This document shows, one piece after another, positions 2,081-62,317 of a stretch of 64,000 bases of DNA. The DNA is from Laccaria trichodermophora (Eukaryota > Basidiomycota > Agaricomycetes > Agaricales > Hydnangiaceae), in assembly GCA_018417955.1 (NCBI GenBank), contig JACTVC010000022.1, positions 372,001 to 436,000 of the forward strand, in the 5' to 3' direction. A program made the translations under genes and the position numbers. The first letter of the stretch is position 1. Each line of letters begins with the position of its first letter. The notes beneath the pieces were generated by a model that did no database searches, had not been told where the DNA came from, and was given only the letters and a program-made list of their open reading frames with translations.

Positions 2081-2966
2081 GATTTAAATGGTAGGTACCA
2101 CTCCTTGGATCAAGATCTTTCCGAATCTTGAGGGTGTTATCATCAAAGCAGCGGACTCGCAACCTAATTTGTCGTGGAGCCCGATGATCCACGCATACTT
2201 AGTGAATTCATCTGCTATGCTGCCCCGTCTCAACATGTTCAAATTCTCAACTGGGGGGGGTAATTACTCGGTTTGGGCCCCATATAACAGACTTACACCC
2301 GAAAGCAATACATGGGTTGAATTATAACTCATTCTAGCGCAAGTCGTCATGTCTATAGTACTACTGTAGGTACTACATGTAATATATAATATCATCGTGT
2401 ATCAGCAACCCTTGTTCGAATTTTCTTACACAAGTTGCACCGGGCCGCTATAGATTGCTTATCAGGACCAGAAACACGAATCGGCGAATAATCGGTGGCT
2501 TTAGAATTTTCGGTGTTTGCCCGAAAATTGCAAGGCTGCCCTAAACCAGACTGGGTATATTACGTTTCTCTCAGTCATGCGTTTCTTTTTCCACTCACTC
2601 ACTCACGCCCACTCACTCACGCCTACTCACTCACGCCTACTCACTCACGCCTACTCACTCACTCAAGTCACTCACTCTCGCCTTACTTCCTCCTTCGTAG
2701 AATCCCTTTCTCGTCCTCAATTTAGTAGTGTTCGAGTAGTAGTATAGTAGTAGTATAGTAGTACCGTAGATTACAAAAAGGATAATAAAGAGCGAAAGAG
2801 AATAATAAAGCTGAAAACAAAAAGCAAGGTACCGGCGATCCAAGGGCATAACAACGCCCTGTCGTCAATCAAGGGGCACCCAGAAAAAGTGCTCAGTTGA
2901 CATCCGTGTCTATTGTTATTTTGGGCATATATCTGTAAAGCGCCAGACGCGCTCAAATAAAGAAAC
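2081..2966. other. Intergenic stretch, no gene recognised
   Basis: No coding pattern with splice support is visible. A TATAGTA-rich piece near 2350-2375 resembles the sequence just upstream of the SPT5-like gene near 4728-4750, perhaps a small duplicated promoter fragment. A GTAGTAGTATAGTAGTAG microsatellite lies near 2733-2763. Confidence 0.5.
2592..2680 (+). repeat. 14-bp minisatellite (ACTCACTCACGCCT)
   Basis: Four to five near-perfect copies of ACTCACTCACGCCT are followed by degenerate CTCACT repeats. It sits about 290 bp upstream of the WD40 start codon. Confidence 0.9.
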
Positions 2967-4588
2967 ATGAATTTCACCTCATTGCCCAAGGTGCGAGGCC
3001 TTTCTCAAAACTGCCTCTGCCCGTCTGACGTCTCTCTGTTTAGTTTGAACAGAAACAGACCCTCGTGCGCCACACCAAACCTCTCAATACCATCCAGATT
3101 AGCTCCGACGGCACTCGTCTCCTAAGCGGCGGTTGTAATTTTTCTACAATCGTGTACTACTACACACTGACTTGAGTGGAGCAGGGGACGACAGACTTCT
3201 GGTTGTGTGGGACTTGCAATGCGGCCAGGAAGCTCAAGTAATATCAGTGGTATTCAACGGTCCTGTTTGCGCGGCTGTGTGGGCCCCTCCAGCAGATCAC
3301 CCAACAGCAATGTTTGCATTTGGATGTTGCGATGGGACATTGTTCGTTTACCATCAGCCAATTCCAGAAGTAAGCAAACCGTTCTCCGCTCCTTCTCACT
3401 CACTTAAGCTGACGCTCACCAACGGCTCAAATATGAATACGCCTCTGGCACTGATGCACATGATGGCAGGATCGAAGATGTTGCATATGACCCTCAACAG
3501 AGCCGACTTGCAACTGCAGGGGATGGATGTGTCAAGGTGTGGAACCTTGATCCTCAAGGTATTAGTATTATAGCATTACGACCCTTATCATTTCACTCAC
3601 CAACGCCAGGACTCGTTACGAACATTGCCTGCGTTCCGGCGGGGCCTTTTATTGCTAGGAGTGTTTCCTTCTACGACAAGGGTCAGAATCTCTTGATCTG
3701 TTACTTGGAGTCTCATGAAGTGTGCGTTTCTTCCACCAGTTTCAAAGATTTAATGATGACCTTTCATTAGACTTAGCTACAAGATTGAGCCTTGGGCCCT
3801 GCAATGGAGACGTCAACTCCCTACTTGAATGTAAGTTCAGCCGGTACCCTCCTTTCGTTTTGATTTTGTAACTTCTCCACAGTGGCCACGCGGTTGTCGC
3901 GGCCGACAATCGGTCTCTCATTGTGTCTAATTTAGTTGATGGGGTCGATGTTTACTCAATCCCACCACTTCACCCAACAAGATCTTTTCAACACCCAATC
4001 CATACCAACGTCCCCCTAGTTGTCGCTTCAGCTCTGGGAGGTGTTTTAATTATGGTTGGTAGTGATGACGGCTCCCCTCGACTCTTCAACATCAATACCG
4101 GCTTGTTCTGCGCTGCGCTCCGTCATGCACCATGTACGTCGGTTGTGTCTTACTCTCAAGCGCTATTTTCTGAAACTATCATTCTTCAGCGGGCCTGGTT
4201 CAGATTGTCGATGTTAGTTGATCAAGATCAGAAATTGGTTTTATGCTAAACGATCGATGATAGGCTCACTCCATCGGAAATCATTGTCTTTTGGCCACAG
4301 GTTCAACGGATATCGACGTCAACATTAAGATTTGGCGCACAGTTGCGGTATGTCTGTTCATCAGCTTTTTGATTCAATAACATTTATTTTTGTTTTATCT
4401 AGCCTGACGAAGAACAGGGTGTAGAACGCCCGGTTCCACCACCTCGATTAACATCTATTGGGCTATGGCAGTTTATCTTAATTATTATCCTGTCCTTGTT
4501 CACGCAGGTTCTCATAGCTACTATTTCGAAGGACACACTATCTAAATATGTAACCCAATTGTTACTGCATATTCCTAGAGGTTTGTAG
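2967..4588 (+). CDS. WD40-repeat protein with C-terminal membrane segment
   Basis: This is a multi-exon gene. It starts at ATG 2967 (MNFTSLPK), and the next exon contains a blade typical of WD40 proteins, with VRHTKPLNTIQISSDGTRLL joining GAGDDRLLVVWDL. Further blades follow: RLATAGDGCVKVWNL near 3510-3550, SGHAVVAADNRSLIVSNLVDG near 3890-3940, and a final VNIKIWRT near 4320-4350. After a proline-rich linker there is one hydrophobic stretch (LWQFILIIILSLFTQ, about 4465-4510), probably a membrane anchor, and the frame stops at 4588. Exons are joined through GT-AG introns of about 45-90 nt. WD40 proteins are scaffolds, and no catalytic role is implied. Several small exon borders are uncertain, and a splice defect near 4220-4300 cannot be excluded. 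The SPT5-like gene follows in the same direction. Confidence 0.65.
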
Positions 4589-54700: not shown

Positions 54701-54983
54701 AAAAGCGTGTTGTATCACTGTTCACCGATCACACGAGGTCGGGAATCGAGTCAACTAGCCCAGGGAGGTCCACACGTTTACGCCTCATGGCAACATCTCC
54801 CGCATGCAAATACTGGCTTGAACCGGATCGCAGAAAGGGTGCAACTGTAACATGCAACTTACCCATGGCATCCCACTATCAATCGTCGCCACCTACGTCG
54901 GGGTAGCTGGCCTATCTATGGCTTCTGTCTTTGGAGCGTTCAAGTTCCTCACTCTCTGGAAACAGGTTCGGCTGTCACGCTAT
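51748..54983 (+). repeat. Tandem segmental duplication, unit 2
   Basis: It is collinear with 48570-51747 at an offset of about 3178 bp, increasing slightly along the unit through small insertions. Similarity continues up to the codons around LWKQVRLSRY of the coiled-coil gene at 54852, beyond which only this unit has sequence. Confidence 0.88.
51917..54345 (+). pseudogene. HSPA12-like Hsp70 ATPase, copy 5, frameshifted
   Basis: It is a near twin of copy 4 from ATG 51917, with phosphate-1 FDIGTTFSG (near 51967), phosphate-2 VDAGGGTIDVSAYG (near 52812) and VLVGGFAASNWLLSE (near 53450). At about 52610 two extra bases (CAGATGCGAGGAAGG against CAGATGCGGAAGG in copy 4) shift the frame, and it stops shortly after at GRRQS. 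Further disruption is seen near 53860-53960, where the exon matching the region before RGELSQP no longer reads through. The remaining exons look well conserved, so inactivation came after the duplication and is recent. A sequencing error at 52610 alone would not explain the second lesion. Confidence 0.85.
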
Positions 54984-56237
54984 AAAGCCGAAAAAGAGGC
55001 AACTGCTGCTCAATTGGCATCGCTTCGTCATGCGTTAAGCGCCAGCCAAGCCTTGGTTCGGGAGAAGGAGGCGAAGGTGGGATCTTTGGAGGAGGATGTT
55101 GGGAACGCGAAGAAGAGGTTGGAGGAAGTCGCAAGAGAGCTGGAACTTTCTCGGGTTCAGAACCAGACACTGGTCGAACGGGGCAAGAGCCTTGCTACTG
55201 AAGTTCAGTGGCTGAACGGCGAAACTCAACGACTGAACCATGATCATGCGCAGACGGTTGAGCTGCTGCAAACGAGGACTGCGGAGTTGAAGGGCGCTCA
55301 AGCCTTTTTGACCAAAGCCGATCACCTGTCGGGCGCAGATGTGATCGGGTTGGTGGAGGGTTTGAATTCGGAGATCATGCAGATTGCGGCCTTCATGGCG
55401 GAGTCATTCGTTTCCGAGGAGAAGATGAAGAGGGTGATTGACACTAGTGAGGAGGAATCGGACGAGTTGAGGGATGCGCGTGGGCAAGCCACGGAAGTGC
55501 TGGGCACAAATATGGTCGTGCTTTTGAAGAGTTTTCAGCATCAGGACGATCCCATTCTGCTCCAAATCGCCTTCCAAGCATGCATGTGTGCTTACACCCA
55601 CTGGATCATCTCCTCGTGGTACTTTGAAGACCCCGAGATCGAGCACGTCCTCAATGAAATCTTTGCGAGGGTTCGGGAAGCCGGTAAGTACCCTCCCAAG
55701 GGAAACTCGCCAAAGAACCACGCTAAAACCAAATTTTCAGAGGAACAAGCCGTCTCCGGAAGATGGCGTTCTCTGACGCGGACACACCTGCACCGAATGC
55801 TGGGCCGGGAACCGGACATGTCGATGTACATGGTTGATGCCTTTGTCAACGTGCTCATCACGGCAGGTTATCAAGAAAAACCAGCTGCGCTCCAAGATCG
55901 AATCATGAACGACTTTGCGGGCAGGATAAGAGTGATCCTCCAAGGTGCCCAACGCTTAAACAGGTCAATCGGAGAAGGTGTTACGTCGTGTGACCTTGAA
56001 GCTCTGTACATTGCCCCAAGTGTGTCGTACGACCCAACGACCATGGAGGACGGCTTCGAGACAGCACCCAAGGACCAGGCAACAACGCCCGAGAAGGTGC
56101 TTTGCACGACTGATTTGGGCCTTGTTCGCGCGGAAAAAGTGTCTGGGGCGGTGGGCGAGTGGCAGGAGCTGGTCCTGTTGAAACCAAAAGTCGTCCTGCC
56201 TTCTGGACTGGACGATATTGTCTCTGCCGGGGAGTAA
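54852..56237 (+). CDS. Coiled-coil protein family, paralog 3
   Basis: The frame is open for 461 codons from MQLTHGIPLS to 56237. However, the family intron is present at 55684-55740 (GTAAGT...TTTCAG, 57 nt, a multiple of three), so the spliced product is 442 residues and the unspliced frame also stays open. The N-terminus has a hydrophobic stretch (LSIVATYVGVAGLSMASVFG) that could be a membrane anchor or signal. A coiled coil follows (about residues 40-160), then the conserved core TAELKGAQAFLTKADHLSGA and LNSEIMQIAAFMAES, then EEQAVSGRWRSLTRTHL, and the tail CTTDLGLVRA ... LLKPKVVLPSGL. It is a paralog of 36442-38129 and 38512-40927. The function is unknown. Confidence 0.87.
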   Translation: MQLTHGIPLSIVATYVGVAGLSMASVFGAFKFLTLWKQVRLSRYKAEKEATAAQLASLRHALSASQALVREKEAKVGSLEEDVGNAKKRLEEVARELELSRVQNQTLVERGKSLATEVQWLNGETQRLNHDHAQTVELLQTRTAELKGAQAFLTKADHLSGADVIGLVEGLNSEIMQIAAFMAESFVSEEKMKRVIDTSEEESDELRDARGQATEVLGTNMVVLLKSFQHQDDPILLQIAFQACMCAYTHWIISSWYFEDPEIEHVLNEIFARVREAGKYPPKGNSPKNHAKTKFSEEQAVSGRWRSLTRTHLHRMLGREPDMSMYMVDAFVNVLITAGYQEKPAALQDRIMNDFAGRIRVILQGAQRLNRSIGEGVTSCDLEALYIAPSVSYDPTTMEDGFETAPKDQATTPEKVLCTTDLGLVRAEKVSGAVGEWQELVLLKPKVVLPSGLDDIVSAGE

Positions 56238-56493: not shown

Positions 56494-58139
56494 TTACAAC
56501 GGCAGTTTACCCTTAAACCAAGCAACCGGGTCAGTCGTCTGTCCCGACTCTCGTTTCGCCTTCGCCCTATCCTTCGTCCCCTTCCGATAATCAGCAACAG
56601 TCCCCAGCGCCTCCCCAGCAAGCGACCCAATAACACTAGGCACAAACGGAATATTCTTCCCTATCCGCGCCCCTTGCTCCTTGAACGTCAAATCCTCCAA
56701 TTGCTCCACCTCCACCTCCACAGTCTCCTTCTCAGCTTCATCCACAACCCCACCCCCAGCAGTGGCTCTCTGGCTCTCAGCTCGTCTCAATTTGGCCTGT
56801 TGCTTCTTCTTCGCGCGGTGATCAGCAACAGCCCCAACAGCTCCACCGACCATCGTGCCGATAACGCTGGGCACGAAGGGGATGTTCGATCCTATTTGTG
56901 CTCCATGCGACGCAAACGTCCATTGCTTCATGCCCTCCAGGTTCTTCTTGTCCTTGTCCACCTTCTCCAGCTTCGCGAGCAGTTCGTCCCGCAACCTCTT
57001 GATCTCCGCCTGCTGTTCTTCGTCTTGCGCCAAACGGGCAGCTTTATACTGCTCACGAAGCCCGTTGATGTCTTCCACATGTTGTGTTTTGAGTTGCGTC
57101 AATTGACTGTCAAGTTCGCGACCTGCATCGGTTTCTGCTAGTGAACGACCGCCCACGATCTCATTCACGACCTTGATCTCGCCAATGGGTGGAAGGTCCA
57201 GGATGGACGATATGACGTTTCGTGCAGACGCAACGGTATTATCGTGGCGAAGGACTTTAGCTCCGTTGTTGACGAACTCTTTGAAGTGGCTGTTCGTGAG
57301 ATCGGCCTCTGTCTTCTCCGCAACGTCACGTCGTGTCTCGTCCCATCTTGTGGTGAGGATGACGACGTTCTTCATGGCGTCAGGCCCACAGAGGCGGGAA
57401 AACATACGAAGATTGCGAGTTGCTGTACCGCCAAAGCGGACGTCGGAGATGCGATGGAGATAGATGAGACCATTCACAGATTTTGCGTTGCGCCTTTCAG
57501 AAAAAAACGTCAGAAAGGTTCAATCAAAATAATCTGAATGCATACCTCTTCAGCAAAAACTCGATCAGATCCTGAAGAAGTTTTGAATCGCTCATGTGTG
57601 CTCGGTTGTCGTCAAAACCAGGAGTGTCGACCAAAGACACCTCCAATTCATCATTTTGGGCGTAATCATAGGTTGAGATATCGCTCGTCTCAGGCTCGAT
57701 GCTCTTTCCAATCTTGACATCCTTATTCCCGGTCAAAAGCCTTATGAACTAAGATGCTCACAATGAGTGTCTGGAGTCTATTCCGGCAGGAGTACAACTC
57801 ACTGATGACTTTCCAGTGCCGGTCTGGCCCATAAGCCTAGCAAAACAACGTAAGCTTTTTGTTAGGGGGAGGAGATTGTCGTAACTTACAAAACCGTGAC
57901 GCTCTTCTGTTGAAGAACAGGAGCACCAGCTTCAGCATTGGCACTGGCGTCATCGCCGGAATCAGACTCCAAATCACTCTCGCTGTCTGACCATGATTTG
58001 AGCTCAGGAATGGTGGGTGCAAACGAAGGAGTTGCTTCGCCCACGCCTTGAGTCGCACCCAATATAAGCCAGTTACACCGCAAGGATAACAATCTCATCA
58101 CCCACCGTTTTTCGTAGGAGCTTCACTATCTTGACTCAT
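56494..58139 (-). CDS. AIG1/septin-like P-loop GTPase with glycine-zipper tail repeats
   Basis: This leftward gene starts at ATG 58139 (MSQDSEAPTKNG). An acidic exon (SWSDSESDLESDSGDD, near 57985) precedes the G domain. The P-loop MGQTGTGKSS is near 57810-57830, then FIRLLTGNKDVKIG, switch-II-like VDTPGFDD (near 57615), GLIYLHRISDVRFGGTATRN (near 57450) and VVILTTRWDET (near 57350), where TRWD may serve as the base-recognition motif. A coiled coil follows (about 57120-56950). Last come two copies of a glycine-rich module, AQIGSNIPFVPSVIGTMVGG and ARIGKNIPFVPSVIGSLAGE, which could insert into or bind membranes. Introns near 57540-57480 and others are short GT-AG. It is divergent from, and paralogous to, the GTPase part of 59334-62317, but lacks any lipoxygenase domain. 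Confidence 0.83.
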
Positions 58140-59333
58140 CCCGGCAGGCAGAGAGAGGAAAGTTGAAGATCTTACGGAAGGCGTCTAGTTATAAGGAGCA
58201 AATACACTTGCACTGCCGATGCCGACTCGTGTAAAAATATATAGAGATTGAGAGCATGTGAACACAAAGGTGTGCTGGTTCTGTTATGTATCGCATTTCG
58301 GAGTTCTTCATCCTCCAGGCATCGGATGTTTTTGGTTCCCCTCGAGTAGCAAATTGGGGGGCGCGTTATCAGAGTCGACACAGGCTAGTTCGCCACATTT
58401 GGTGTCGCTATCTCGCACGGTGGTGACCATTCCACAGCAATCCTTTCTAAAATGTCAGAAACAAAGAACTGAATCTTGATCGTGCGTGCTTACTAGGAAA
58501 ACGTGTATTCCCACCAGGTCCAGTCTCAGCGTTATCGATCCGTGTAACTGGACAACGTGACGATGGTGAGATCAGAAATATGTCAGCCGCCGCCAGGAAC
58601 ATCTGTGTAACGCAATTTCAGAGAGGTCATGATGATGAGCGACGATGAATAGGGCAATGGTAGTGATCAGAGTGAAGTTCAAGTACATTTCTCACGGCCT
58701 CTTATCCTCAAGTTTTGCTCCTCAACAGCCCACCAGTTTGTGCGTATATTTTTCGCTCGTCGGGTCTTTGAATCTTCTGACTCTTCTTCAAAGTGTTTCC
58801 AGCGCACGGTTGGATTTCCCTGACATATGTCGGAGTGAAGAACCGCAAAAGCGCCGTACGCGGCTGAGTTGCCCCGCACTGCAACCGCTTTACCATTAGT
58901 GTATCTATGTCCAATCGCGTTTAATCGATGACGTTGAGGGTCCTGAGGCCTGATGACCATTGACAAGGCACGTTTTGCGCAGCAAGCTTTTCTCATTTTA
59001 ACCAGTGGTGAACTCTTCAGGCTCAACGGATTGGAAGTATGGGAGTGGCTTGAATTCGCTTTGCCAGATAGCAAAGCTATGTAACAACATCAATGGTCAA
59101 AACCGCGTGGATATTCCAAGAGATCTCTCAAGAAGTGGAAAACATCCGATGTCTGGAAGTATAGGAATGCCGAAATGCGATACCTGTGCCTAATATTGGA
59201 AAGCATCCTTCACAAGGACAGCTTGTGTTCACATGTGCGCTATCTACATATATTTATCTACCACTTGGCAGTGCTAATATGCCGGGTCTTTATCAGTTAC
59301 TGTCCCGACGCGATTCCAACCTACTTGCTCGAC
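58140..59333. other. Divergent intergenic region between the two GTPase genes
   Basis: About 1.2 kb separates the start codons. Unsupported open frames occur on both strands (for example 58645-58899), but no motif is recognised. It must hold both promoters unless an unrecognised gene is present. Confidence 0.5.
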
Positions 59334-62317
59334 ATGTCCCAGGACACGAATACTGCGAAAAACGGTGAGTGACCAGATTGCTGGCATGCTTCCCTAATAT
59401 CTCATTCGTCCTATGCTCAGTTACGGAAGACCTCTCCAAGTTGAATTTAAATAACGATGAGAGCCCTACGATCGTGTAAGCCAGGACAATTTACCTCCCA
59501 TTGATGAGAGCTCAATCGTGTCGTTAGCCTCATGGGAATGAGTGGCACTGGGAAATCATCCGTGAGTGGTCTCAATTACACTACAAAGACTTTGGGCGCT
59601 AATAGTATGTTAGTTCATTAAACTTTTGACTGGCAATAAGGACATCAAGATCGGGATGACTATCGACCCCGAAACTAGCGACATCTCGACCTACCAGTTT
59701 ATCAACGATGGGTCGGAAGTGACAATCGTTGATACTCCCGGTTTTGATGACAATCGACCACATATGAGTGATTCGAAGCTTCTCGAGGACACAACCAAGT
59801 TCTTGTTGAAAAGGTATGCGCCGAGGCTTCGTGAACCAATCATTTTCGCTGATATCTCAATTCAAAAGGCTCAACACAAACTCCCTGCAAGGTCTCATCT
59901 ACCTTCACCGCATCTCCGACGTCCGCTTTGGCGGTACTGCGACACGCAACCTGCGTATGTTTTCCCGCCTTTGTGGGCCCGACGCTATGAAGAATGTCGT
60001 TATCCTCACCACGAGATGGGATGAAACGCGGCTCAACGTTGCACAGAGGACTGAGACAGAGCTCATCAACACCTATTTCAAAGAATTCATCGACAACGGA
60101 GCTCAAGTCCTGCGTCATGATAACACCGTTGAATCCGCGCGTGAGGTCATAGCCGCCATCGTCGATCGTCCTCCCATCGCCCACTTGCAAGTCATTGATG
60201 AGATGATGAGCGGGCGTTCATTGTTCGAAACTGAAGCGGGCCGAGAGCTTGACAATCAGCTTTCCAAACTCCATACTCAGCATGTGCAAGAGATCAACGA
60301 CCTTCGTGAGCAGTACAAAACTGCTCGTTCAGCCCGCGACGAGGGTCAGCAGGCGGAGATCAAAAAGTTACGAACCGAACTTATGGTCAAACTTGAAAAG
60401 GTGGACAAGGACAAGAAGAATTTGGAAAGCTTCAAGGACTTGACGTTCGCGGCGCAAGGAGCGCAGATAGGGGAGAACCTCCCTTTCGTACCTCGCAAGC
60501 TTGGTGCATGGGCCGGTGGGAGAGTAGGAACCATTGTGGGCAACCTGGTGAAGAGGGATCGTGATGCATCCCGAAAGTCCGGGAGAGGTGTGTTTGAGTG
60601 GGCTTTCTCGGACATGTATCCGCCTTATCTCAAGACCGTCCCAAAGGCGGACCAAACGAACATCTTGGACATCTTTGACTTTGCTGCCCTCACGGAAACG
60701 GCCGCGACGCTGTTCAGCCAACCTCTTGCAGACATATTGTTCAAGATGCATGACCTTGCGCCTGATTTCAACACTGACCGCACCATGAAGGATCTCGTGG
60801 ACCGTAATCTTAAACTCCACCGCAAGTCACGTCAAGATACCCGCGCCATTCGGAAGCGAGACATGTATTACAACAAAAATATTGGGCTTCGTGATGACTG
60901 GTACACAGATGCTGCGTTTGGTCAGCAGCACTTTACGGGAACGAATACCACCACCATCACCCTTGCACCCTCGCGTTTGATTGACGAATTCAAGACCGTC
61001 GCGCATACCCAGGAACGAGCTGATGTTGAGAAACTCTTGGAATCTCATTCCGTGGATCTGTATGTAGAGGATTACAGCGACTTCCGCACCGCCATGGGGC
61101 TCCCTCCGAGCCACGAGTTTACATCGGAAGGACGTTATGGTTGTGCTGCCGTCGTGCTCTTCCATCTTGAGCCCGAAGGGAAACTACATCCCCTAGCTAT
61201 CACACTCGACCACAGGGGTACCATCCAGGCTTCAGTGACCATCTTCAATCGCCGTATCAGCTCGGCAACTCCAGGAGATGAGTACTCAGACTGGCCATGG
61301 CGTTACGCAAAGATGTGCGCTCAAGTCTCGGATTGGCTTCGCCATGAAGTTGCTGTCCACCTCGTCTATACACATCTCGTCGAAGAAATCATGATTGTTT
61401 CTGCCCATCGCACGCTTGACCTTGACCACATACTCTTCAAGTTATTGGAACCACATTGGAGCACCACTCTCTCGCTGAACGCGGCAGCCCGCGAAACTCT
61501 CGTTCCCAAAATCATCATCGGGATGACTGGTTTCACAGCAAAAGAAACCTATGCCTTCCTCAAAACATCGTACAACAACTTCAATTGGACAGACCACTAC
61601 GTCCCCAATGATTTGCGGAAGCGCGGCTTCCCACCGGAGGACCTGGACAAGCCCAAGTACCACAACTACGGCTACGCACGCAACATTTCCCGCACCTGGG
61701 AGATTCTGCGAAAGTTCGTCAGCAAGGTATTGACAGCTGCGTATCCGGGTGGCGACGCCCAGGTTGCAAACGACCCATCTGTTGCTGCCTTTTGTCAAGA
61801 GGTCCGCTCTGGCTCTGGAGGCCAGCAACCCAGCTTCCCTGAGATCAAGACATTGGATGGGTTGATTGACTTTGCGACCATGTGCATCCATGTCGCATCG
61901 CCACAGCACACCGCGGTCAACTACTTGCAGCAGTATTACCAGACCTTCGTCCCCAATAAGCCATCGGCCCTCTGTGCCAGACTTCCTCAATCATTGACGG
62001 AGCTCCAAGCTTACGGGGAGCAGGATGTGTTGTTGGCTCTCCCCGTCCGTCGGCAACGAGATTGGCTTATCATGGCCCAAGTGCCTTATTTGTTGTCATT
62101 TGAGATGCTGGACGACCAAACGATCCTCCATTATGCGACGACGACCTGCAATGCGTCGTCCACTCCGGAAATCATTCGTGATGCCGCCAAAACACTGAAG
62201 GAAGACCTTGAGGCGTTCCAGTACACAGTTTCGCGGTATAGTCAGGAACTTGATGATCAGAAAACGCCGTATCTTGTTCTGGATCCAAGCAAGACTGCGA
62301 TATCGATTCTCATTTAA
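59334..62317 (+). CDS. Fusion protein: AIG1-like GTPase, coiled coil, lipoxygenase
   Basis: Exons 59334-59364, 59421-59475, 59528-59561, 59614-59813 and 59869-62317 join exactly in frame to 922 residues. Residues 1-230 are a P-loop GTPase: GMSGTGKSS (32-40), FIKLLTGNKD, VDTPGFDD, then HRISDVRFGGTATRN and VVILTTRWDET. A coiled coil (about 230-290) and one glycine-rich module (AQIGENLPFVPRKLG) follow. From about 325 onward the sequence is a lipoxygenase: DDWYTDAAFGQQHFTGTN, LYVEDYSDF, AAVVLFHLEPEGKLHPLAI, then HLVYTHLVEE with iron/manganese ligands His604 and His609. FKLLEPHW leads into NAAAR, and HTAVN gives His787 and Asn791. The protein ends TAISILI, with Ile922 as the C-terminal ligand. Spacing of ligands matches plant and fungal lipoxygenases. 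Lipoxygenases oxygenate polyunsaturated fatty acids. The last exon alone, uninterrupted, contains G-domain motifs and the full lipoxygenase domain, so the fusion is not a splice guess. Confidence 0.9.

What the first reader, a model, noticed from the sequence alone, without database searches (positions are those of the whole stretch)
59334..62317. GTPase-lipoxygenase fusion with complete metal site
Seen: one uninterrupted final exon carries the G-domain C-terminal half, a coiled coil and a whole lipoxygenase domain. Lipoxygenase ligands are all present: H-x4-H (604, 609), HxxxN (787, 791) and a terminal isoleucine (922). Known: lipoxygenases need exactly these ligands, and fungal ones are usually stand-alone or secreted. 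Inference: nucleotide-dependent membrane recruitment or assembly could gate oxylipin production. I know of no described AIG1-like GTPase fused to a lipoxygenase.
Basis: partly seen in the sequence, partly recalled or inferred. Interest (0 to 1): 0.92.

Follow-up and report, generated by a model that had tools for sequence, protein, structure and literature searches.

The report
Mushroom GTPase fused to a lipoxygenase
In a Laccaria mushroom, one gene encodes a GTP-binding switch protein joined to a complete fat-oxidising enzyme; the same joined design recurs in gilled mushrooms, with two different switch families attached, which suggests (but does not yet show) that GTP controls when and where these fungi make oxidised-fat signals.

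Summary
A five-exon gene model (59334-62317, +) encodes 922 residues: AIG1/MMR_HSR1-type G domain, coiled coil, Gly-rich 'LPFVP' tail, and a lipoxygenase with H604, H609, H787, N791 and C-terminal I922 (Pfam E 2.8e-45; best solved relative: Fusarium graminearum lipoxygenase). The neighbouring GTPase is 97% identical to a Laccaria bicolor protein, so the host is a Laccaria. The fusion is no oddity: 14 of the 120 listed database hits, from 12 Agaricales species in 9 genera, carry both domains; 12 of the 14 are filed as (manganese) lipoxygenase. Nine literature searches aimed at it listed no paper on it. New here: the fusion lipoxygenases share one clade, yet Laccaria's G domain belongs to another GTPase clade, that of its head-to-head neighbour (69% identical; conserved promoter blocks), with another junction. 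One lipoxygenase lineage was thus joined to two GTPase lineages; second fusion or swap is unresolved. It is the only intact lipoxygenase found in the 59-Mb assembly; the other locus is a decayed partial copy. Likeliest mechanism (inferred, untested): GTP-dependent dimerisation or scaffolding positions and controls the lipoxygenase at lipid surfaces, perhaps with the neighbour. No RNA or enzyme data were available.

The parts
59334..59364 (+). fusion gene, exon 1 (start codon)
   Evidence: canonical gtgagt donor
59421..59475 (+). fusion gene, exon 2
59528..59561 (+). fusion gene, exon 3: micro-exon with most of the P-loop (LMGMSGTGKSS)
   Evidence: a 34-base exon in the neighbour gene too
59614..59813 (+). 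fusion gene, exon 4: G2/G3 region (DTPGFDD)
59869..62317 (+). fusion gene, exon 5: rest of G domain, coiled coil, tail, whole lipoxygenase, stop codon
59924..59926 (+). R126 of SDVRF, aligned with the Arg of GRY in GIMAP7 (the same motif of relative P0004 also with GRF of GIMAP5): putative arginine finger
   Evidence: weak matches; role recalled
60233..60439 (+). coiled-coil helices (protein residues about 229-297)
   Evidence: AlphaFold2 model of exon 5
60458..60565 (+). Gly-rich 'LPFVP' tail (residues 304-339), homologous to the tail of the stand-alone neighbour GTPase; stands before the lipoxygenase in the type B fusions only
60593..62314 (+). lipoxygenase module (residues 349-922); for 15 of 19 type A fusions the linker match starts at residues 331-349
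61358..61360 (+). H604 metal ligand
61373..61375 (+). H609 metal ligand
61907..61909 (+). H787 metal ligand
61919..61921 (+). N791 metal ligand
62312..62314 (+). I922 C-terminal metal ligand
56494..58139 (-). head-to-head stand-alone GTPase paralogue (475 aa; exons 58139-58106, 58046-57890, 57836-57803, 57748-57546, 57493-56494), two IPFVP/Gly-rich tail units, no lipoxygenase
   Evidence: 97% to Laccaria bicolor LACBIDRAFT_294476
58140..59333 (.). 1194-bp shared intergenic region between the divergent genes
59139..59274 (+). conserved blocks upstream of the fusion (AAAACATCCGATG, CCGAAATGCGATAC, TTGTGTTCACATG, ATATATTT, GGCAGTGC)
58210..58332 (-). the same blocks upstream of the neighbour gene

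Best explanation
The gene makes one polypeptide in which an AIG1/septin-like GTPase switch is joined through a coiled coil to a lipoxygenase with a complete metal site and C-terminal Ile. Most likely mechanism: GTP loading drives G-domain dimerisation (with itself and with the probably co-regulated neighbour GTPase) and coiled-coil assembly; the assembly holds the lipoxygenase on or near a lipid surface, so that linoleate is oxygenated only where and when the scaffold forms; GTP hydrolysis, helped by the conserved arginine of the D-x-RF motif, takes it apart. Shown here: an open reading frame across both parts, intact motifs on both sides, recurrence of the design in Agaricales, two different GTPase lineages on one lipoxygenase lineage, promoter blocks shared with the neighbour. 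Inferred: dimerisation, membrane or lipid-droplet placement, nucleotide control of catalysis, partnership with the neighbour.
For: Domains and ligands. Recurrence: 14 of the 120 listed hits (520 in all) carry PF01926 and PF00305; 22 of 249 sequences compared match both parts. P-loop, DTPGFDD and TxWD are kept in 15 of 15 full-length fusions. G tree of 49 rows: the window G domain lies in a 10-row clade (100/100) with the neighbour, three L. bicolor proteins, two Sphaerobolus proteins and three unnamed ones, away from the type A clade of 26 rows (100/100); holding it with the 24-row type A set is rejected, lnL -311.8, AU p 3.3e-5. Lipoxygenase tree: 41 rows (22 fusions, 19 lipoxygenase-only hits) form one clade, 100/100 against 12 chosen outgroup rows, 0.909 in the 121-row FastTree. 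So the joining happened at least twice (second fusion or swap), which argues that the pairing is useful. Purifying selection on the G part: dN/dS 0.15, dS 1.30 over 317 codons against the neighbour. Shared promoter: best local score 53 against at most 33 in 1000 shuffles and 26 in 1000 other window stretches. G domains of the same family are joined to kinase, PNP_UDP_1 and HET domains elsewhere. GIMAP precedent: GIMAP7 stimulates its own and GIMAP2's GTP hydrolysis, GIMAP2 is on lipid droplets (passages of PMC8201404); GIMAP7 is the best solved match of the window's G domain, GIMAP5 and GIMAP7 of P0004's.
Against: No transcript, protein or enzyme evidence. Similarity to GIMAPs is weak (window G domain E 0.0011; P0004 E 5.5e-6). 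The fusion's tail is much less hydrophobic than the neighbour's (best 19-residue mean 0.48 against 1.68 and 1.34), is the most diverged stretch (dN 0.61 over the last 17 aligned codons) and is modelled with pLDDT under 50: a membrane role for it is doubtful. pTM is only 0.63 and 0.68, and no gating contact between domains could be examined. Twelve of the 19 lipoxygenase-only members of the clade show no PPxY linker remnant and may be true stand-alone enzymes that do without a GTPase. In Cyclocybe aegerita, LOX3, which may be the fusion (my guess), was barely expressed (passages of PMC8097960). No protein named as L. bicolor was among the 120 listed hits. In the FastTree the two type B lipoxygenase lineages did not group.
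Confidence: 0.5

Rival explanations
1. Tether or scaffold without switching: the G domain and coiled coil only localise or multimerise a constitutively active lipoxygenase; nucleotide is structural.
For: In the Hebeloma fusion a long helix (228-316) and a linker with pLDDT under 50 (315-355) separate the domains. PPPY in the linker of 9 of 19 type A fusions would suit a docking role.
Against: P-loop, DTPGFDD and TxWD are kept in 15 of 15 full-length fusions, and the D-x-RF arginine in 14 of 15.
Confidence: 0.27
2. Defence or self/non-self executor: the GTPase acts like the signal-sensing NTPase of fungal NLR-like proteins and the lipoxygenase is the executor, making lipid hydroperoxides that damage membranes or alarm neighbours; the head-to-head paralogue is the partner.
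For: Related G domains are joined to HET, PNP_UDP_1 and kinase domains (P0145, P0128, P0134, P0141-P0143, P0216, P0223, P0229), effector types known (recalled) from fungal NLRs; a large paralogue family, 50 matches (exon pieces, a lower bound) in this genome; fused and stand-alone copies with nearby tags, Amanita phalloides 001406-001415.
Against: No NACHT, NB-ARC or repeat domain above cut-off in the fusion; GTPase first, enzyme last; no inducible or polymorphism data.
Confidence: 0.15
3. Annotation artefact: two transcripts (a GTPase and a lipoxygenase from an internal promoter) share a chance open frame.
For: No RNA evidence here; the conserved promoter blocks upstream of exon 1 say nothing about an internal start.
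Against: Same order and frame in 14 database proteins of 12 species (these are predictions too); relative P0001 (98% identical, unnamed source) is open across the G-domain end and the lipoxygenase; two different junctions, both in frame.
Confidence: 0.05

Closest known systems
Fungal lipoxygenases with C-terminal Ile (Fusarium graminearum lipoxygenase, PDB 6ns2; Pleurotus ostreatus lipoxygenases)
   Same: Catalytic domain, metal ligands and terminal Ile; E 8.5e-123 to 6ns2; fold match rank 1, 39% identity.
   Different: These matched only the lipoxygenase part; ours carries a GTPase and coiled coil in front.
GIMAP/AIG1 GTPases (GIMAP7 3zjc, GIMAP5 6z3e)
   Same: G-domain motifs, Pfam AIG1 above cut-off, arginine aligned with GRY/GRF, coiled coil and C-terminal tail in the stand-alone paralogue.
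   Different: Weak sequence similarity; no GIMAP with an enzyme domain is known to me (recalled).
Agaricales 'lipoxygenase' or 'manganese lipoxygenase' proteins with PF01926+PF00305 (Hebeloma, Amanita, Mycena, Lentinula, Hypholoma, Collybiopsis, Cyclocybe, Marasmius, Gymnopus)
   Same: Same architecture; lipoxygenase halves of the 19 type A fusions 63-74% identical to ours.
   Different: Their G domains belong to another clade (29-45% identical), mostly have TTFWD instead of TTRWDE and lack the LPFVP tail before the lipoxygenase, 0 of 19.
Allene oxide synthase-lipoxygenase fusion of coral (3dy5)
   Same: A natural lipoxygenase fusion (hit).
   Different: Partner is a second oxylipin enzyme (recalled), not a GTPase.

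Membership tests
Lipoxygenase (PF00305) | Profile match above curated cut-off | tested here: met
   155.5 bits, cut-off 23.6
Lipoxygenase (PF00305) | Five metal ligands His, His, His, Asn, C-terminal Ile | tested here: met
   H604, H609, H787, N791, I922 aligned with 6ns2
Lipoxygenase (PF00305) | Lipoxygenase fold | tested here: met
   Foldseek rank 1 6ns2_A, E 3.7e-40 on the predicted exon-5 model
Lipoxygenase (PF00305) | Oxygenates polyunsaturated fatty acids; which metal is bound | not testable with these tools
   needs purified protein
AIG1/GIMAP GTPase | AIG1 profile above curated cut-off | tested here: met
   33.3 bits, cut-off 27; MMR_HSR1 scores higher, 35.6
AIG1/GIMAP GTPase | G1, G3 and G4 motifs | tested here: met
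   GMSGTGKSS, DTPGF, TTRWDE
AIG1/GIMAP GTPase | Catalytic arginine in trans across the dimer | tested here: inconclusive
   R126 aligns with the GIMAP7 arginine (for P0004); role not tested
AIG1/GIMAP GTPase | Guanine nucleotide binding and hydrolysis | not testable with these tools
   biochemistry
Fungal NLR/STAND protein | NACHT or NB-ARC NTPase plus repeat domain | tested here: not met
   none among the 11 families listed; nSTAND6 17.1 bits is under its cut-off 27.7
Agaricales GTPase-lipoxygenase fusions (type A) | Lipoxygenase half in the same clade | tested here: met
   41-row clade 100/100, 0.909 in FastTree
Agaricales GTPase-lipoxygenase fusions (type A) | G half in the same clade | tested here: not met
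   rejected, AU p 3.3e-5

The most novel reading that the evidence does not exclude
Agaric fungi evolved a GTP-switched lipoxygenase by pairing one lipoxygenase lineage at least twice with AIG1-like GTPases of different lineages; in Laccaria it forms a co-regulated two-gene system in which a stand-alone GTPase and the enzyme-bearing GTPase co-assemble on lipid surfaces to trigger local lipid peroxidation or oxylipin bursts, as a wound, partner-recognition or defence response.
Probability: 0.2. Interest if true: 0.9.

Novelty: new variant of a known kind. Interest (0 to 1): 0.68.

Why it matters
[quoted passage not shown] A GTPase built into the enzyme, joined at least twice, would give a direct handle: GTP state, a mutable P-loop, and a candidate partner gene. 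In this Laccaria assembly it is also the only intact lipoxygenase found, so one gene deletion would ask what lipoxygenase does in an ectomycorrhizal fungus.

Tried and rejected
Two-transcript artefact: kept only as a weak rival, because the same order and frame recur in 14 database proteins.

Simple vertical descent of the whole fusion: rejected for the G half but not for the lipoxygenase half. Whether Laccaria swapped its G domain after an older fusion, or made a second fusion, is unresolved. Type B lipoxygenases lie inside the type A set by one branch of 96/86, but a tree with them outside is not rejected (AU p 0.199); type B monophyly has only 84/33, and in the FastTree P0002 stood apart from the window and P0001. 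A looser G-tree constraint (24 type A rows plus window against the nine other type B rows only) was not rejected (p 0.222); I rely on the full constraint, chosen after seeing that result and the tree.

Recent gene conversion with the neighbour: not supported, dS per 60-codon window is 0.90 or more, saturated in the first window.

Fungal NLR membership: not met. Other enzymes fused to G domains in this genome: 10 ORFs from 10 of 26 further G loci (L005, L007-L011, L013-L032) were scanned; hits at E 0.01 were coiled-coil or odd families and one AIG1, all under their cut-offs. The other 16 loci were not scanned.

Ppo-type heme dioxygenase (PF03098) as another oxylipin source: two adjacent matches at C2:815405-815767, over the cut-off together (51.2 bits), so probably one intron-split gene; not followed further.

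Shared promoter code elsewhere: BLAST of the fusion promoter found only itself, missing the diverged neighbour copy; the pattern found only the neighbour copy, because the fusion has CATATATTT there. Neither search rules out further genes with this code. Only the best local match was tested against shuffles; the other blocks were not tested singly.

Fold search: Foldseek only; the 50 rows shown of each list are lipoxygenases, so the G-domain fold was not tested structurally.

Literature: ten searches used, nine aimed at the fusion and one at GIMAPs. Three papers were seen by passages (PMC6584016, PMC8201404, PMC8097960); one paper is not held. No other listed paper was opened.

Full report
What is there. 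The window is C15:372001-436000 of a 59.0-Mb, 77-contig assembly. On the + strand, five exons between 59334 and 62317 with canonical splice sites give an open 922-residue protein; exon 5 alone (59869-62317) carries most of it. Pfam finds MMR_HSR1 (27-93), AIG1 (27-161) and Lipoxygenase (449-894, E 2.8e-45), all above their cut-offs. Against the PDB the second half matches Fusarium graminearum lipoxygenase over 434-922 at E 8.5e-123, and the first half matches GIMAP7 at E 0.00094. AlphaFold2 on exon 5 gives mean pLDDT 80.0; its best PDB match is 6ns2. On the Hebeloma relative P0003 it gives a G domain, one helix of 89 residues (228-316), a low-confidence linker and the lipoxygenase.

Host. The divergently transcribed neighbour (56494-58139, minus, 475 aa) has the same five-exon layout and is 97% identical to Laccaria bicolor LACBIDRAFT_294476. 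The host is therefore a Laccaria (Agaricales); the species is not settled.

The fusion is a conserved family. Of the 120 best of 520 hits, 14 carry PF00305 together with PF01926: Hebeloma cylindrosporum, Amanita phalloides (2), Mycena galericulata, M. maculata, Lentinula edodes, L. aciculospora, L. detonsa, Hypholoma sublateritium, Collybiopsis confluens (2), Cyclocybe aegerita, Marasmius tenuissimus and Gymnopus androsaceus, i.e. 12 species in 9 genera. Twelve of the 14 bear 'lipoxygenase' or 'manganese lipoxygenase' in a source's name; the two Amanita proteins are 'hypothetical'. All nine genera are Agaricales, in seven families. In my own comparison 22 of 249 sequences match both halves: window, P0001 and P0002 (type B) and 19 of type A, five of which have only part of the G domain. 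Nineteen further proteins of the same lipoxygenase clade showed no G match; 7 of these 19 carry a PPPY or PPSY linker (P0017, P0023, P0027, P0029, P0030, P0036, P0038), mostly after coiled-coil sequence, and look like truncated models or exon-only frames. The other 12 may be that, or true stand-alone enzymes.

Two GTPase lineages on one lipoxygenase lineage. The window's lipoxygenase is 63-74% identical to the 19 type A fusions, but its G domain only 29-45%, against 72% to its neighbour. In a 49-row G tree the window sits in a 10-row clade (100/100) with the neighbour, three L. bicolor proteins, two of Sphaerobolus stellatus (Geastrales) and three of unnamed source, away from the type A clade of 26 rows (100/100), which also holds stand-alone GTPases. 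Holding the window with the 24-row type A set costs 311.8 log-likelihood units (AU p 3.3e-5), or 182.5 with its nearest row P0153 moved along. In a 53-row lipoxygenase tree the 41 fusion-clade sequences, picked from a 121-row FastTree (support 0.909), form one clade against 12 chosen outgroup rows (100/100). The junctions differ too: the LPFVP/IPFLP Gly-rich tail stands before the lipoxygenase in 3 of 3 type B fusions (window and P0001 by pattern; P0002 by eye in the alignment, missed by the pattern) and by pattern in 0 of 19 type A fusions, 9 of which have PPPY in the linker. So the joining happened at least twice, as a second fusion or a swap. The order of events is open: AU p 0.199 for type B outside type A, 84/33 for type B monophyly, type B not together in the FastTree, and p 0.222 for a looser G constraint.

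A probably co-regulated pair. Between the two start codons lie 1194 bp. Both upstream regions carry AAAACATCCGATG-Y-CTGG, CCGAAATGCGATAC, TTGTGTTCACATG, ATATATTT and GGCAGTGC in the same order. The best local score is 53; 0 of 1000 shuffles (maximum 33) and 0 of 1000 other window stretches (maximum 26) reach it. The coding G parts are old duplicates (dS 1.30, dN 0.194, dN/dS 0.15 over 317 codons; least dN, 0.088, in the window from residue 124; most, 0.61, in the last 17 codons), so these blocks are probably kept by selection. The promoter homology also suggests that a whole GTPase gene, promoter included, was the 5' donor (inference).

Only intact lipoxygenase found. Six-frame searches of the assembly find two lipoxygenase loci: this one and a second at C15:485734-486812, about 51 kb on, which has stops and frame breaks, covers only residues from about 529 on, and shows no G part. 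PF03098, the family of Ppo-type dioxygenases (recalled), gives matches at one place only. These searches ignore introns and score only the best candidates, so a heavily split gene could be missed.

How it probably works. Shown: GTPase and lipoxygenase motifs kept together (15 of 15 full-length fusions for P-loop, DTPGFDD, TxWD and both His/Asn motifs; 14 of 15 for the D-x-RF arginine, missing in P0013, and for the terminal Ile, missing in P0009). Inferred: GTP-driven dimerisation as in GIMAPs, where GIMAP7 stimulates its own and GIMAP2's GTP hydrolysis and GIMAP2 sits on lipid droplets (passages of PMC8201404). R126 aligns with the arginine of GRY in GIMAP7, as does that of P0004, which also aligns with GRF of GIMAP5; that this is GIMAP7's catalytic arginine is recalled. 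The neighbour would be the natural partner. Against a membrane role for the fusion's own tail: its best 19-residue hydropathy is 0.48 against 1.68 and 1.34 in the neighbour's two tails, and its model is poor.

Known or new. Each half is a known kind. Nine searches aimed at the fusion listed no paper on it, though few of the listed papers were opened; the two mushroom lipoxygenase papers seen by passages name five Cyclocybe lipoxygenases and hold no word beginning with 'GTP'. The library holds only open-licence papers, so an account elsewhere cannot be ruled out. Proteins with this design are public, so the architecture is new to description, as far as searched, not to sequence databases. I file it as a new variant of a known kind: a GTPase-coupled fungal lipoxygenase, with a second GTPase lineage in Laccaria.

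Noticed in passing
L037 (C15:483000-492000), 2735-3851, minus: Decayed second lipoxygenase copy with stops and frame breaks, about 51 kb downstream of the fusion; covers fusion residues from about 529 on and shows no G-domain part.
   Followed up: partly
window 56494-58139, minus: Stand-alone GTPase with two tandem IPFVP/Gly-rich tail units; a like tail stands near the C-terminus of 4 of 10 stand-alone type A-clade GTPases by pattern (P0129, P0160, P0165, P0172).
   Followed up: partly
G000 contigs C19, C12, C26, C33 and others (L005-L032): Large paralogous G-domain family: 50 matches (exon pieces) in the genome, 21 of them on contig C19.
   Followed up: partly
proteins P0128, P0134, P0141-P0143, P0145, P0216, P0223, P0229: Related G domains joined to PNP_UDP_1, kinase or HET domains in other fungi: the G module is repeatedly fused to effector-type domains.
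   Followed up: partly
protein P0121 (1338 aa, unnamed source): 510 bits for a 345-residue query at 43% identity suggests several tandem G domains in one protein.
   Followed up: no
Amanita phalloides locus tags 001406, 001407, 001408, 001412, 001413, 001415: Fused and stand-alone GTPase genes with nearby tags; the G domains of five of the six (not 001406) group together (99/95): local clusters may exchange G domains.
   Followed up: partly
window 54822-56237, plus: 471-codon open frame with a hydrophobic start and coiled-coil-like sequence next to the GTPase pair; no Pfam family above cut-off.
   Followed up: no
C2:815405-815767: The only An_peroxidase (PF03098) place found in the genome, two short adjacent matches: Ppo-type dioxygenases may be few here.
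   Followed up: no
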